From Collinsella tanakaei YIT 12063 (GTDB lineage: Bacteria; Actinomycetota; Coriobacteriia; Coriobacteriales; Coriobacteriaceae), in the NCBI RefSeq assembly GCF_000225705.1, contig NZ_JH126469.1:1-64000 (forward strand): a DNA stretch of 64,000 nucleotides, read 5' to 3'. The notes under the pieces were generated by a model that was not told the origin of the DNA, did not search any database, and worked only from the letters and a program-made list of their open reading frames with translations. Every line of letters starts with the position of its first letter. Position 1 is the stretch's first letter. The translations under genes were made by a program, and so were the position numbers. This document shows positions 441-48,130 of this stretch, piece after piece.

Positions 441-723
441 ACGTCTTTCTCCTTCCAAAGGAACAGATAATCGCCAGTTATCGAGAGAAGCGCAGGTAGC
501 GGTGTTTTACGGGTTTTGCGACCTGGCAAACCTTGGATGATCAGCGGGCGATCTTTGGGTTGCGCGTGCTTGGAAGGGCCGGTTGCGGCGTGCGGGGGTC
601 TCACTTTGGGGGCTTATCGTCCAAAAAAGAGCGATACGGATGTGTAGGGGCTCTGTTATTTGGTATGGGCGGTTTCTGCACGCCGGCGCGTGCGGGGCGG
701 ATCTTTTCAGCCGTTCCTCGTCC

Positions 724-864: not shown

Positions 865-3729
865 CTACCGGTACGTGACCACCTTGGTGCCGTAGGGAAT
901 GTTGTCGTAGATCCACTTGGCCTGGTCGATGCTCATGCGGACGCATCCGTTGGAGACGTGGACGCCCAGGCGGCCGTCCATTACGCGGAAGCTGTTGGCG
1001 TAGTACTGGATGGAGTGGATAAGGTAGTCGCCGTAGAACTGGGTGTAGTAATAGCAGCTATAGCCGTGGTTCTCGCCAAAGGAATAGCCCTTACCGGTGA
1101 CGGTGAACTCGCCCACAACGGTGGGCGTGCTGGGCTTGCCGGTGCTGCAGGTCCAGTAGGCGTCCATGTTCCAGTACCCCATGCCGCCGGAGAAGATGCC
1201 CACGCGGCAGTTGGTGGTGTCTACCATGATGAGGCGGTTGGTGGCGCTAAAGCGTCCCTGCGCGCGCGTGTACATGGACAGCTGCGTTGGGGGCATGGGC
1301 GGCACGTAGGTGGTGGGCTGCAGGGTAAAACGCTGGGCGGCGGAGTTGTTGGACTGGTACACCTGCAGGTTTCCGCCGTTTGCGGCGCTTCCGTTGGAGG
1401 TGATGCCGCCGGAGACGTCGAGCACGCAGGCGCCGCCCGCGCCCGCCGCGCTGGCGATTTTGTAGCCGCCTGCATCGAACGTGATGCTCCAGCGCTGGGC
1501 GGCGCTGCCGTTGGGTTGGTACTGCTGCACGTTGGCGCCGGAGTATGCCGACCCGCCCGCGACGTCGAGCGCCTTGCCGCTGGCGGCGTTGACTATGGTG
1601 TAGGTTCCGTCTGCGTTGCGGGCGACGTTCCACTTCTGTGCGCCGGAGTTGTTGGACTGGAATACCTGCACGTTGGCGCCGCTGGCATAGGATGCGTTCG
1701 CCACATCGATGGCCAGGCTGGTGTTAGCGACGGTAAGGGTGTAGGTGCCGTTTGGCAGGGTGTCCGTGGTGGACGCGAGCGCGAAGGCCTGCGCGGGGCT
1801 GCCGTTTGCCTGCCACAGCTGCAGGCGGGTGCCGTTGGCGGTGCTGCCTGCAGTGAGGTCGAGCACGCGGCCGGGGTGGGCGACGGACTCGAACGCAATG
1901 CCGTGCGCGGTGATGACGGGGGTCCACTGTTGGGCGGGGTTCGCGGCGGTCGCGCCTGCTGCGGCGCTGGTGCCCGTTGCTGCGCCGGTGCCCGTTGCTG
2001 CGCTGGTACCCGCTGCTGAGCCTGTTGCTGAGCCCGACGCGGCGCGCTGGCTCACCGTGCCGGCGGAGTCCGCGGTAAGGAACTTGGCCGATCCCAGGTT
2101 CTGGATGGTGTAGGTGTTCTCCGCTCCCGGAACAAGCGCGATGCGCCAGCGTTGGGCCAGGGTGCCGTTGGATGCGTAGGCCTGCACGGAGGCTCCGGCC
2201 GCCTGGCTTGCGCCCGAGACCTCGAGCACGCTGTTGGTGGCCGCGCTTGCGCCCAGGGTGTAGATGCCCTCTGCCAAAAGGTTGGTCTGCTTGGCAAGGG
2301 TAAAGCGCTGGGCCGCGCTGCCGTTGGGGGTGTAGGCGTTGACGTTGGCGCCGTTGTAGGATGCCGCGCCATCGATGTTGAGCGCCATGCCCGTCGCTTT
2401 GTTGATAAAGGTGTAGCTGCCGTCCGCATTGGCTACGGGCGCCCACAGCTGCGCGGGGTTGACCTCGCTCGCCTGGTACTGCTGCACGTTGGTACCGGGA
2501 ACAACGTCTGCCGTCTCGACGTCGAGCGCCTTGCCGCTGCCGGCGTTGACTATGAGGTAGTAGCCGTTGCAGTACTTAAAGGTGAACAGCTGGGCAAAGG
2601 TGCCGTTGGCGCTCCACAGCTGCGCGTTGGCGTTGTTGTTGCGCGACGCGTTGTAGATGTCCACGCCGCTTGCGGGGGCGCACTGCGGCTTGAGGCTGAA
2701 CCAGCCCTGGGGCAGGGTGCCGTCTTCCACCGCGGCGGGTGCTGCGGGCGAGGCGTCGATAAAGGTAAAGGTTTGCGCCGCGCTGTGGTTGGAGTCCCAA
2801 ATCTGCACCGGGGTGGTACTTGCGATTGAGCCTCCGCGCAGGTCAAGAGCGATGTTGGGCGCCAGGGCGGAGACAATGATGCAACGCGTTGGGAACGCGG
2901 TGGCGGTGGTGTCGCTACCGGATTCCTCGTCCAAAGAAATCACGATCCACTTTTGCGACCAGCTGCCGTTGGGGGCGTACTGCTGCACCGGGGTTCCCGC
3001 GGCGGAGTTGCCCCACTGCACGTCGAGCGCCAGGCCGGATGCGACGTTGATGAACGTGACGTAGCCCGCGTCATCATGCGTGACGCGCCAGCGCTGGGCC
3101 CCCGTGCCGTTGCTGGCGTAGAGCTGGATGGTCGCGCCACCTGCCGCGGATGCTCCCTGAACGTCGAGCACGCCGCGCTGGTTGGCTGCCTGCGACGCGG
3201 AAGACGCGATGGCGTAGGTGCCATCGGCCACGGCTGCGGCGTGCTGGGCGGCGAGGGCGTCCAGGGCGGCGCGGTCGTTGTCCGGCGCGGGGGTTTCTTC
3301 TGCGGGGGCGTCTTGGGTTGTGATGTTATTCGGGGTTGCGGGGGTGGTTACGTTGCCCGCGGTACTGTCGGCGGTACTGTCTGTGGCGGTGCCTGGGGCG
3401 GTGGGGTCCGTTGGATCCGCGGGGGCTGCGGTGTTGTCGGAGTCTGAGCCGCCCGTGGAGTTGCCGGAGGTTGCGTCACCGCCGGTGCCGTCAGCGGTGC
3501 CGTCTGCATTGGGCGTGCTGGGCGCTGCGGTGCTTTGGTCTGCGGTATCCGCGGCTGCTGCCTGCGAAGGCGCCGGCGAAGACGTTGACGACGTGGTTTG
3601 CGCCATGGCGACCAGGGCGGGCGGCATGGCCAGCGAGCACACCAGGGACGCGCAGGCGAGTCCGGCCATAACGCTTGCCCGGGCACCGGGGCGCCAGGTG
3701 CGGGAGAGTTTGTTCATGGTATCGACCAT
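865..3729 (-). CDS. Secreted L,D-transpeptidase (YkuD) with ricin-type lectin repeats
   Basis: Predicted peptidoglycan cross-linking or wall-anchoring enzyme outside the cell. The ATG at 3717 (MNKLSRTW) is a better start than 3729, because an AGGA lies upstream of it while the 3729 ATG has its AGG directly adjacent. Layout (954-residue numbering): signal peptide to about residue 44; Thr/Ala/Asp/Pro-rich linker to about 150; many beta-trefoil (ricin B, QxW) repeats of the type AQRW/AQLW followed by ALDV or VLDV, about 155-800; YkuD domain from about 810 to the end with HSI and the signature HVSNGCVRM, whose Cys (about 929) would be the nucleophile. The lectin repeats probably bind wall or host glycans. 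A terminator follows. Its promoter region and first codons are duplicated at 4310-4485. Family call is secure; substrate is inferred. Confidence 0.9.
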   Translation of the reverse strand: MVDTMNKLSRTWRPGARASVMAGLACASLVCSLAMPPALVAMAQTTSSTSSPAPSQAAAADTADQSTAAPSTPNADGTADGTGGDATSGNSTGGSDSDNTAAPADPTDPTAPGTATDSTADSTAGNVTTPATPNNITTQDAPAEETPAPDNDRAALDALAAQHAAAVADGTYAIASSASQAANQRGVLDVQGASAAGGATIQLYASNGTGAQRWRVTHDDAGYVTFINVASGLALDVQWGNSAAGTPVQQYAPNGSWSQKWIVISLDEESGSDTTATAFPTRCIIVSALAPNIALDLRGGSIASTTPVQIWDSNHSAAQTFTFIDASPAAPAAVEDGTLPQGWFSLKPQCAPASGVDIYNASRNNNANAQLWSANGTFAQLFTFKYCNGYYLIVNAGSGKALDVETADVVPGTNVQQYQASEVNPAQLWAPVANADGSYTFINKATGMALNIDGAASYNGANVNAYTPNGSAAQRFTLAKQTNLLAEGIYTLGASAATNSVLEVSGASQAAGASVQAYASNGTLAQRWRIALVPGAENTYTIQNLGSAKFLTADSAGTVSQRAASGSATGSAAGTSAATGTGAATGTSAAAGATAANPAQQWTPVITAHGIAFESVAHPGRVLDLTAGSTANGTRLQLWQANGSPAQAFALASTTDTLPNGTYTLTVANTSLAIDVANASYASGANVQVFQSNNSGAQKWNVARNADGTYTIVNAASGKALDVAGGSAYSGANVQQYQPNGSAAQRWSITFDAGGYKIASAAGAGGACVLDVSGGITSNGSAANGGNLQVYQSNNSAAQRFTLQPTTYVPPMPPTQLSMYTRAQGRFSATNRLIMVDTTNCRVGIFSGGMGYWNMDAYWTCSTGKPSTPTVVGEFTVTGKGYSFGENHGYSCYYYTQFYGDYLIHSIQYYANSFRVMDGRLGVHVSNGCVRMSIDQAKWIYDNIPYGTKVVTYR

Positions 3730-3846
3730 CCTATTGCAGGGGTTGCATACAGGTTGAATGATACCGTTGCGGTGGCCGCACTTTTGCCTGGTATCTGCCA
3801 GCGGTTGGGTGTTAACAGAGGCAGCCCGCGCCGCACGGATTTCAAT

Positions 3847-4138
3847 CGCTGAAAACGCCCTCTAGTTGGGCTTGGCACTCTGCTAAAAAACGCCTCCAGT
3901 TTGACTCGATTGCTAAAAATGAGCTTCAGTTGGAGTTACGCAAGAAGGCCCTTGGATGCGCCGGGCTATCTACCAGCTGCTTCCCCGAGGCGTCTCTTCG
4001 TGCGGGGTGGGGCAAGTCCAACTGAAGGCTAAAAGTAGCAGCGCCAAGTCCAACTGGAGCTCGAAAATAGCAACGCGATGCAAACGAAGGCTGATTTCAG
4101 CAGAACGCCAAGTCCAACTGGAGGTCAAAAACAGCAGA
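3847..4138 (-). repeat. Dispersed 0.3-kb inverted multi-unit repeat, copy A
   Basis: About 30-bp units built from CCAAGTCCAACTGGAG, a few variable bases, then a GTTTTCAGCAG-like tail. Three units at 3847-3940 lie in one orientation and four at 4013-4138 in the other, around a 72-base centre. The two arms are roughly reverse complements. Read as its reverse complement, it aligns along its length with copies B (29811-30138) and C (47839-48130), including a diverged unit containing GTTTGCATC (4077-4107). No credible coding frame. Function unknown. Confidence 0.85.
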
Positions 4139-4284: not shown

Positions 4285-4309
4285 CCGTCGCGGCGTTGCT
4301 GCAAGGGGC

Positions 4310-4485
4310 GCGCAGGCGACCCCGGCCATAACGCTTGCCCGGGCGCCGGGGCGCCGGGTGCGGGGGAATTAGTTCATGGTAACGACCATCCTATTGCAGG
4401 GGTCGCATACAGGTTGAATGATACCGTTGCGGTGGTCGCACTTTAGTCTGGCATCTGCCGGCGGTTGGGTGTTAACAGAGGCAGC
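4310..4485 (-). pseudogene. Duplicated promoter and start region of the L,D-transpeptidase gene
   Basis: Bases 4310-4485 match 3650-3825 without gaps and with 14 mismatches by my count, exactly 660 bases apart. The copied part covers about 100 bases upstream of the transpeptidase start and about 20 codons. In this copy the start ATG (4375-4377 on the minus strand) is followed at once by AAC and TAA, so it cannot make the signal peptide. Repeat A and the glycosidase remnant lie between the two copies, which suggests a duplication followed by decay. Confidence 0.8.
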
Positions 4486-29810: not shown

Positions 29811-30138
29811 CGCGCTGTTTTTGGCCTCCGGTTTGACTTGGGGTCTCTGCTGAAAACAGGCTCCGTTTGCATCCGTCATCTACTTTTTGGGTCCAGTTGG
29901 ACTTGACGATGCTGAAAATGCGGTCCAGTTGGACTTGGGCTCGGAAGGCCCCGAGGGGTCGTGAGAAAAAGCGCTGGATAGGAGCCCGGAGCACCAGGCT
30001 CCCGGCGGCGCCAAGTTTAACTGGAGGTCATTTTTAGCGTCGGAGGTAAACTGGAGCCCGTTTTCAGCAGAACGCCAAGTCCAACTGGAGCCCGTTTTCA
30101 GCAGAACGCCAAGTCCAACCGGACCGCGTTTTCAGCAG
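29811..30138 (+). repeat. Dispersed 0.3-kb inverted multi-unit repeat, copy B
   Basis: Left arm 29811-29939 has four units in one direction (CTGCTGAAAA..., TCCAGTTGGACTTG...). Right arm 30010-30138 has four in the other (CCAAGTCCAACTGGAG, then GTTTTCAGCAGAACG), two of them nearly identical. The 70-base centre holds a GGAGCC/GGCTCC hairpin and shares GCTGGATAGGAGCCCGG-like sequence with copy A. It lies 5' of the DUF559-like gene and 3' of the subtilase. It is the least decayed of the three copies. Confidence 0.9.
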
Positions 30139-47653: not shown

Positions 47654-47838
47654 TCTTGCTTGCTAGTCTATCACGTTTGCCTGGGGAGTTGCTGCGCGGG
47701 GGCGCACGTTACATGGATGGGGGCGGCGCTGGGCGCTTGGCGTGAGGCCTGGCGCGGGGTTGGGCACTGGTTGGGTGCGGGATTGGGAACGGGTTGGGCG
47801 CTGGTTGGGCGCGGGTTGGGCGCGGGGTTGGGCGCTGG

Positions 47839-48130
47839 TGCTGTTTTTGGCCTCCGGTTGGACTTGGGCTTCTGCTGAAAATGGCCTCCGGTTGCGCTCG
47901 ACTTCTACTTTTTGGGTTCAGTTGGACTTGGCAATGCTGAAAACGCGGTTCAGTTGGACTTGGGCGTGGAGGCCTTAAGGGACTGTGCGGGGAAACGCGA
48001 GGTAGGGGCCTTGTTCGCCCGGAGGGCTGACCGCGCCAAGTCCAACTGGAGCTTATTTTCAGCACCCGGCGTGAACTGGACCTCTTTTTTAGCAGAGCGC
48101 CAACTCTAACTGGAGGGCGATTTTAGCAGT
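47839..48130 (+). repeat. Dispersed 0.3-kb inverted multi-unit repeat, copy C
   Basis: Left arm 47839-47962 has four units (ending TTCAGTTGGACTTGGGC) and aligns through its length with copy B. Right arm 48034-48130 has three units that match copy A in reverse complement (AACTGGAGCTTATTTTCAGC, then TTTTTTAGCAGAG). A 70-base centre contains GCCCGGAGGGC. It lies between the divergent LacI-family gene and glmS. The GGTTGGGCG-rich stretch just before it (47750-47838) is a simple tandem repeat. Confidence 0.88.

What the first reader, a model, noticed from the sequence alone, without database searches (positions are those of the whole stretch)
29811..30138. A 0.3-kb non-coding repeat with opposed arrays of a 30-bp unit occurs three times in 64 kb
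Copies at 3847-4138 (reversed), 29811-30138 and 47839-48130 share one plan: 3-4 units of a ~30-bp module in one direction, a ~70-base centre with a GCCCGG-containing hairpin, then 3-4 units in the other. The module contains the near-palindrome TCCAACTGGA and a spaced TTTTCAGCAG tail. The arms could pair into a ~120-bp imperfect hairpin, or the units could be an array of protein sites. It is larger and more regular than REP/BIME elements and matches no family I know. All copies are intergenic, each near the 5' end of at least one gene. This is my main candidate for an undescribed element.
Basis: seen in the sequence. Interest (0 to 1): 0.75.

Follow-up and report, generated by a model that had tools for sequence, protein, structure and literature searches.

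The report
Thirteen rigid opposed-array elements in Collinsella
A gut bacterium of the genus Collinsella carries thirteen scattered copies of an apparently undescribed 0.3-kb non-coding element, built of repeated sites facing each other across a core motif that recurs in related bacteria, with spacing kept almost to the base pair; its function is unknown.

Summary
The three window copies belong to a family of 13 in the 2.49-Mb genome, a Collinsella species. Unit matches (<=3 mismatches) lie only in those 13 copies and in none of 41 other genus genomes; no Rfam, phage or plasmid match.

Each copy has a left arm (site, degenerate unit, site), a centre, and a right arm (site, site, further unit and, in 11 of 13, an outer site). 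Inner sites lie 92 bp apart in 12 of 13 copies, 91 in one, although the centre is at background identity (0.33-0.34) against 0.84-0.86 for four of five sites. Only a core like TCTACCTGCGSTTTT is kept in the centre.

That core recurs genus-wide: 291 exact hits in 39 of 42 genomes, reversed control 0, often at the apex of long palindromes of several stem classes. It is also enriched in the order.

Best reading: an order-wide palindromic element whose arms, in this species, became arrays of binding sites for an unidentified protein that assembles a fixed-geometry DNA complex. A maintained RNA hairpin is not supported in own copies. REP/RAYT and target-duplication tests were negative. Function is unproven.

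The parts
29811..30138 (-). Element copy C3b (canonical orientation, core reading CTACC, is the minus strand)
29827..29936 (-). C3b canonical right arm: sites at 29827-29839, 29892-29904, 29924-29936 plus one degenerate unit between the first two
29963..29981 (-). C3b core, minus strand CTATCCAGCGCTTTTTCTC, variant of the genus core TCTACCTGCGGTTTT (9 of 15 in the aligned columns)
   Evidence: coordinates read
30013..30138 (+). C3b canonical left arm: sites 30013-30025, 30077-30089, 30111-30123 and a degenerate unit near 30043
47839..48130 (-). Element copy C3c, between a lacI-type gene (minus) and glmS (plus); gene names from my reading of the translations
47989..48006 (-). C3c core (minus strand CCTACCTCGCGTTTCCCC), 10 of 15
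   Evidence: coordinates read
3847..4138 (+). Element copy C3a (canonical orientation is the plus strand), between a ricin-type-lectin/YkuD gene (minus) and an oxidoreductase-like ORF (plus)
3969..3986 (+). C3a core TCTACCAGCTGCTTCCCC, 11 of 15
   Evidence: coordinates read

Best explanation
Shown: a 13-copy dispersed, largely intergenic DNA element with arrays of a ~32-bp site unit facing each other across a centre that keeps its length and one core motif but not its sequence; the core belongs to a family of palindromic elements found through the genus and, in part, the order. Inferred: each TCCAACTGGA-centred unit is a binding site for a dimeric, so far unidentified DNA-binding protein; about three helical turns per unit put the proteins of an arm on one DNA face; proteins on both arms meet across the 92-bp centre and form a looped complex that presents the core. 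The element probably began as a non-autonomous palindromic mobile element (single-unit arms, as in genome G020) and its arms were amplified in this lineage. Because the copies are diverged yet geometrically intact, I think they are now kept in place by selection as chromosomal nucleoprotein sites (local DNA organisation or a gene-boundary function) rather than being actively transposing copies. The last step is the weakest.
For: Spacing: left inner site to core 43 bp and core to right inner site 49 in 12 of 13 (42 and 49 in the other), right inner to second site 32 and second site to next unit 31 in 13 of 13. Mean pairwise identity over 12 copies: four of five sites 0.84-0.86, right outer site 0.70, core 0.59, rest of centre 0.33-0.34, flanks 0.30-0.37. 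No unit match outside the copies. Every copy matches the genus core at the aligned columns with 9-14 of 15 (random windows mean 3.7, P(>=9) 0.004; the orientation of each copy had been chosen by this motif). CTACCTGCGSTTTT has 291 exact hits in 39 of 42 genus genomes, reversed control 0 (summed); 55 of 79 core segments have inverted arms above shuffles. G020 locus L111 shares 17 consecutive bases with an own copy, GCTGAAAACGGCCTTCA; over 55 palindromes the next best shared word is 13. Arms are not more complementary within than between copies. Apart from the C4b/C4c duplicate the closest copies are 84% identical by BLAST (76% with flanks).
Against: No protein was identified. No expression, binding or deletion data. 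Selection in situ is inferred from lack of indels, not measured on orthologues: no relative with the same elements was found. A mobile family whose transposition demands fixed geometry would look similar if source copies were diverse. Nine of 13 copies lie on two contigs, five within 91 kb (simulated P about 0.004 for 12 independent copies, part of the contig lengths guessed), which the model does not explain. The arms fold strongly, most of all in C4b and C4c (z -11 to -12), whose two outer units look matched to each other by eye. The register test used an alignment with a few gap columns, so the outermost units are tested less well.
Confidence: 0.45

Rival explanations
1. Still-mobile or recently mobile MITE/foldback element: arms are transposase (or recombinase) binding sites acting in trans, the core is the cleavage or synapsis site, copies are non-autonomous.
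For: Dispersed, largely intergenic, found in this species only; in the alaS gap seven aligned relatives lack the element; copies C4b and C4c are one ~0.6-kb duplicated segment including flank on both sides; in relatives one stem class occurs at several loci with unrelated flanks.
Against: No target-site duplications above control for 3-8 bp, though C3b alone has a 7-bp direct repeat at its ends (P 0.12 over the 13); apart from C4b/C4c no pair of copies above 84%; no Y1 transposase by Pfam PF01797 (other transposase families not searched); geometry intact over a randomised centre.
Confidence: 0.3
2. Long structured RNA (regulatory hairpin or sRNA) expressed from each locus.
For: Low folding energies, z -4.5 to -12.2. 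In relatives, 27 copies of stem classes A-C align without gaps; 92.6% of cells pair (0 of 500 shuffles), 15 of 23 pairs have double changes (4 of 500), covariation score 0 of 500, pair types 137 of 500 (rows had been chosen for complementary arms). At 15 of 16 compared pairs of relatives' copies, paired positions diverge less than the rest.
Against: Own copies show no within-copy excess of complementarity; A-tract and T-tract unit forms face each other unpaired in many copies (by eye); between relatives' copies 47 of 119 one-sided changes keep pairing, by my estimate near what transitions alone would give, and double changes are 3 kept, 8 broken; no Rfam family.
Confidence: 0.12
3. Bidirectional intrinsic terminator or transcription insulator whose core (CCGCAGG-loop-CCTGCGGTTTT in some relatives) stops transcription.
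For: Some relatives' cores form a perfect GC hairpin followed by T (L098, L103); two core loci look like plain terminators by eye (L106, L118).
Against: Own cores have no left half of that hairpin: 0 of 13 copies beat shuffles at 5%; copies C3a, C3c and C3e appear to lie between divergent genes; terminators do not need opposed arrays at fixed spacing.
Confidence: 0.08
4. REP/BIME element handled by a RAYT-type Y1 transposase.
For: Species-specific palindromes with a constant short motif (its complement contains GTAG, which I recall as a REP signature).
Against: No PF01797 match in the genome, while 5 of 14 control genomes ring; GTAG lies at the centre, not at the foot of the stem; 0.3 kb with arrays is far larger.
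Confidence: 0.03

Closest known systems
BrickBuilt MITE of Porphyromonas gingivalis (PMC4596501; outline with abstract and part 1 of the homology section seen)
   Same: Dispersed (19 copies), always intergenic, nearly species-restricted, built round short tandem units (23 nt), no internal transposase.
   Different: BrickBuilt has one tandem block between leader and tail with 12-bp terminal inverted repeats like those of IS5-family elements; here two opposed arrays face a core and spacing is fixed. Own ends were not compared with resident IS elements; target duplications were not above control.
Prokaryotic MITEs such as ERIC, BOX, RUP, Correia (review PMC10969869; outline, section 2 and passages seen)
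   Same: Under 500 bp, intergenic, palindromic, multi-copy.
   Different: No direct-repeat flanks above control; the constant part is central, stems change between classes and species; own copies have array arms.
REP/BIME with RAYT (from general knowledge)
   Same: Constant short motif with variable palindromic stems differing between species.
   Different: No Y1 transposase gene found; motif is apical; size and arrays.
Phage lambda attP-type sites and Tn7 ends (from general knowledge, analogy only)
   Same: Arrays of protein sites on both sides of a core or of a short span, fixed geometry.
   Different: No recombinase or transposase identified here; multi-copy; no evidence of recombination at the core.

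Membership tests
Prokaryotic MITE | Short (<500 bp), non-coding, intergenic, multi-copy | tested here: met
   13 copies of 254-349 bp, largely between predicted genes; five overlap ORFs of my own choice (C3b, C1, C3d, C4c, C8), of which the truncated ABC ORF at C4c is a real gene fragment
Prokaryotic MITE | Terminal inverted repeats shared with a resident IS | not tested
   Outer tails are inverted (TGCT...AGCA), but no resident IS ends were compared
Prokaryotic MITE | Target-site duplications in young copies | tested here: not met
   3-8 bp direct repeats at ends not above control (7 bp in C3b alone, P 0.12); the copies may be too old to tell
Prokaryotic MITE | Empty sites in relatives | tested here: inconclusive
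   Element absent from the alaS gap of seven aligned relatives, own gap longer by 364-540 bp, more than the element. At glmS and dnaK gap lengths vary, some relatives having longer gaps with other sequence. No clean junction; 3 of 13 loci looked at
REP/BIME with RAYT | Y1 (PF01797) transposase in the genome | tested here: not met
   0 matches in own genome; relatives not searched
REP/BIME with RAYT | GTAG/GGAG tetranucleotide at the foot of a 20-40 nt hairpin (recalled) | tested here: not met
   Core is at the centre of the palindrome
Rfam structured RNA | Match at gathering score | tested here: not met
   Window: only a tRNA at gathering score; the named copy and the hairpins of 20 relative loci give only hits far below gathering; one search did find a neighbouring SRP RNA and tRNA
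Structured RNA (any) | Compensatory change in the stem | tested here: inconclusive
   Own copies: no (0.493 within, 0.506 between). Relatives' classes A-C: covariation high, on rows chosen for complementarity; between orthologous or similar copies changes are mostly not compensated, yet paired positions diverge less in 15 of 16 pairs
BrickBuilt-like minisatellite MITE | Tandem units inside a MITE with leader and tail | tested here: not met
   Two opposed arrays round a core, no leader or tail seen
attP / Tn7-end type nucleoprotein site | Cognate recombinase or transposase | not tested
   Only PF01797 was searched for in the genome

The most novel reading that the evidence does not exclude
An order-wide class of chromosomal nucleoprotein sites in Coriobacteriales: a constant core with interchangeable palindromic arms that turn over between species and between loci of one genome, presumably co-evolving with an unknown DNA-binding protein or recombinase; in this Collinsella species the arms have become multi-site arrays held at almost base-pair-exact spacing.
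Probability: 0.3. Interest if true: 0.85.

Novelty: new variant of a known kind. Interest (0 to 1): 0.6.

Why it matters
Spacing that is conserved while the sequence between is randomised is a strong sign of a DNA-geometry function, which I know from few dispersed bacterial repeats. The same core with exchangeable arms across a genus of gut bacteria gives a natural series for asking whether such repeats are selfish, structural or regulatory, and makes the unknown partner protein findable by pull-down. For annotation, it marks a repeat family in Collinsella for which cmscan found no Rfam model.

Tried and rejected
RNA hairpin with compensation between arms: not supported for the own copies in a within-versus-between-copy test; the script scored every register with at least 40 compared columns and printed the best 12. 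REP/RAYT: no PF01797 in the genome. Target-site duplications: not above control. Search of relatives with the element itself: 0 of 42 other genus genomes. Degenerate unit in the species collection: one hit, a lone unit in an unrelated MAG contig; records of the own or a very near genome may be left out there. Viral contigs: none. Phage and plasmid records with the element: none; with a relative's hairpin: none in phages, one Collinsella aerofaciens record among plasmids, which also named the genus. Core as one half of a tyrosine-recombinase or terminator inverted pair: perfect in some relatives (AAAACCGCAGG-7-CCTGCGGTTTT), but no own copy has the left half above shuffles. Chromosome position: dnaA is on contig C8 near 13 kb; contig order is unknown, so position relative to origin or terminus could not be judged. 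Orientation relative to genes: no clear preference by eye. Literature: searches showed no description in the listings seen. PMC8040213 (passages and section 8 seen) lists palindromic candidate RNAs of the human microbiome; its tables could not be read, so relatives' hairpins may be in them. The name Collinsella-1 RNA, recalled from memory, was searched as text (no paper).

Limits of counts: the core segments used for hairpin tests were a convenience sample (79 distinct segments from 74 loci, orthologues included, own genome not). The genus pool held 43 genomes, of which searches drew 42. Gene calls were my own ORF choice plus Pfam for nine proteins; some neighbours are uncertain. output was cut in the middle. 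C4c was left out as a duplicate.

Full report
Observation. Copies at 3847-4138, 29811-30138 and 47839-48130 align over nearly their whole length. Clusters of unit matches across the genome (2,492,085 bases, 20 contigs) give 13 copies: C1 480.5 kb; C2 29.5 kb; C3 3.8, 29.8, 47.8, 67.0 and 94.3 kb; C4 83.4, 118.2, 127.2 and 150.0 kb; C6 49.7 kb; C8 128.9 kb. All 65 unit matches with up to 3 mismatches lie inside them, with none for the reversed pattern and none in 41 other genomes of the genus. The DNA query itself matches 1 of 43 genus genomes, the own one.

Anatomy. Oriented so that the centre reads CTACC, a copy is: outer site, degenerate unit, inner site | centre | inner site, second site, degenerate unit, outer site. 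C6 and C8 lack a recognisable right outer site; C4d and C8 have an ordinary unit in place of the right degenerate one; C3d, C4d, C3b and C6 carry extra units (read by eye). Units come in a T form (GATTTCAGC) and an A form (GAAAATAGC or AAAAAGTAG) tied to position: the second right site is A form in 12 of 13 copies, and all 26 units at the two degenerate positions are T form (by eye). Distances are left inner site to core 43 and core to right inner site 49 in 12 of 13 (42 and 49 in C4a), then 32 and 31 in all 13. Mean pairwise identity over 12 copies (C4c left out as a duplicate of C4b) is 0.84-0.86 in four of the five sites, 0.70 in the right outer site, 0.56-0.80 in tails, 0.52-0.57 in degenerate unit bodies, 0.59 in the core, 0.33-0.34 in the rest of the centre and 0.30-0.37 in the flanks. 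Outside the core the centre has lost its sequence but not its length. My inference is purifying selection on geometry.

Hairpin or sites. All 13 copies fold strongly on both strands (z -4.5 to -12.2, 40 shuffles each), as opposed arrays must. If pairing mattered, the arms of one copy should fit each other better than arms of other copies. In the 12 best registers printed they do not: 0.493 within against 0.506 between in the best, differences of -0.014 to +0.017. C4b and C4c, with z near -11 to -12, may be an exception: their outer units look matched by eye. A-form and T-form tracts often face each other unpaired. This favours protein sites in DNA.

Relatives. The centre motif derived from own copies (CTACCTGCGSTTYTYC, one mismatch) also hits other genomes, and there it often sits at the apex of long inverted repeats. 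The exact CTACCTGCGSTTTT occurs 291 times in 39 of 42 genus genomes (rows summed), 0 times reversed; only 2 of these are in the own genome. Of 79 distinct core segments, 55 have inverted arms that beat the best of 30 shuffles by more than 4; by left-arm motif they fall into classes A 23, B 8, C 8, E 5, D 4, other 7, where one 'other' (L154) looks like a variant of B. The other 24 of 79 did not pass; among the core loci are plain terminators and apparently coding matches (by eye). Different classes occur in one genome (G001: A, B, C, D). In the order, excluding the genus, 37 of 125 genomes have CTACCTGCGGTTTT, the reversed control 2 of 125 (counted from its rows); 4 of 12 such loci examined have inverted arms above the best of 50 shuffles, one marginally, and one has class-D-like arms in another family (L218). 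Twenty of the relative loci gave no Rfam match to their hairpins at gathering score. The genus is Collinsella: contig C6 of genome G007 has the exact length of NZ_OY725717.1, Collinsella aerofaciens, which also matches the hairpin.

Link between own elements and relatives. All 13 own copies match TCTACCTGCGGTTTT at the aligned columns with 9 to 14 of 15; random windows average 3.7 and reach 9 in 0.4%. The orientation of each copy had been chosen by this motif, which helps the match somewhat. Genome G020 (L111, L194) has a single-unit palindrome that shares 17 consecutive bases, GCTGAAAACGGCCTTCA, with an own copy; over 55 palindromes the next best shared word is 13 and most are 9 to 11. So the own element is best seen as an array-armed descendant of a core-plus-palindrome element. 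Other relatives seem to have repeated arm modules too (G029 L206, G037 L208, by eye).

How relatives' palindromes evolve. Twenty-seven copies of classes A-C align over 152 columns without a gap; 92.6% of cells pair and the covariation score exceeds all 500 shuffles, 15 of 23 pairs show double changes (4 of 500 shuffles reach this), and the number of pair types is ordinary (137 of 500). These rows had been chosen for complementary arms, so this shows that classes differ while each is palindromic. In 16 comparisons of copies (11 shown orthologous by flanks, 5 presumed; not independent), one-sided changes kept pairing in 47 of 119 cases and double changes in 3 of 11, by my estimate about what unselected transitions would give. 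Against that, paired positions diverged less than the rest in 15 of 16 comparisons, which may be a bias of taking the structure from one sequence or real constraint. On balance the palindrome seems to matter at birth or in DNA rather than as an RNA stem kept in place.

Mobility. In the alaS gap, seven aligned relatives lack the element and their gaps are 364-540 bp shorter. At glmS and dnaK gaps vary, many shorter and some longer with other sequence. No clean empty site was obtained. No target duplication stands out, though C3b has a 7-bp direct repeat. Copies C4b and C4c lie in a duplicated segment (594 aligned columns, 88.7%) that carries part of a truncated ABC-transporter gene. No Y1 transposase was found. 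Some relatives' hairpins persist at the same site between species.

Location. Neighbours include glmS, a lacI-type gene, alaS and dnaK (my reading of translations), and by Pfam a penicillin-binding protein, a YkuD/lectin protein and a subtilase with SLH domains. Divergent, tandem and convergent settings all seem to occur, so a promoter or terminator role for all copies is unlikely. Five copies lie within 91 kb of contig C3 (P about 0.004 in a rough simulation).

Judgement. The element is real, undescribed in what I could search, and its almost exact geometry over a randomised centre is unusual. Its kind, dispersed palindromic repeats between genes, is known, so I call it a new variant. The protein, the function and the mode of spread are open.

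Noticed in passing
window 3644-3825 and 4304-4485: A 182-bp direct repeat (92%) with the 5' region of the lectin/YkuD gene flanks element copy C3a, as if the gene start had been duplicated round the element.
   Followed up: partly
window 47740-47838: A run of imperfect GGGTTGGGCGC-type repeats lies directly beside element copy C3c.
   Followed up: no
L036:7991-8583 and L036:17057-17608 (own contig C4): Duplicated segment about 9 kb apart carrying a terminator-like hairpin, the element and a fragment of an ABC-transporter gene that is truncated at the element.
   Followed up: partly
L160, L177, L178, L181, L182, L186: A second repeat, about AAAATGATCCGTTTTCCTCCGTCCCC, recurs beside the hairpins in the C. 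aerofaciens group (by eye).
   Followed up: no
L177 (G007:C1:1094700-1095950): Three hairpin elements of different stem classes with cores within about 0.5 kb.
   Followed up: no
L191 and L167: A hairpin lies near an SRP RNA gene (L191), another near a partial, below-threshold tmRNA match (L167).
   Followed up: no
window 487-499: A lone core-like sequence CTACCTGCGCTTC on the minus strand, without the unit arrays.
   Followed up: no
L033 and L038: Copies C3d and C6 both lie beside similar ABC-exporter-like sequence (69% over 662 bp) in the same relative orientation, perhaps an old duplication of gene plus element.
   Followed up: no
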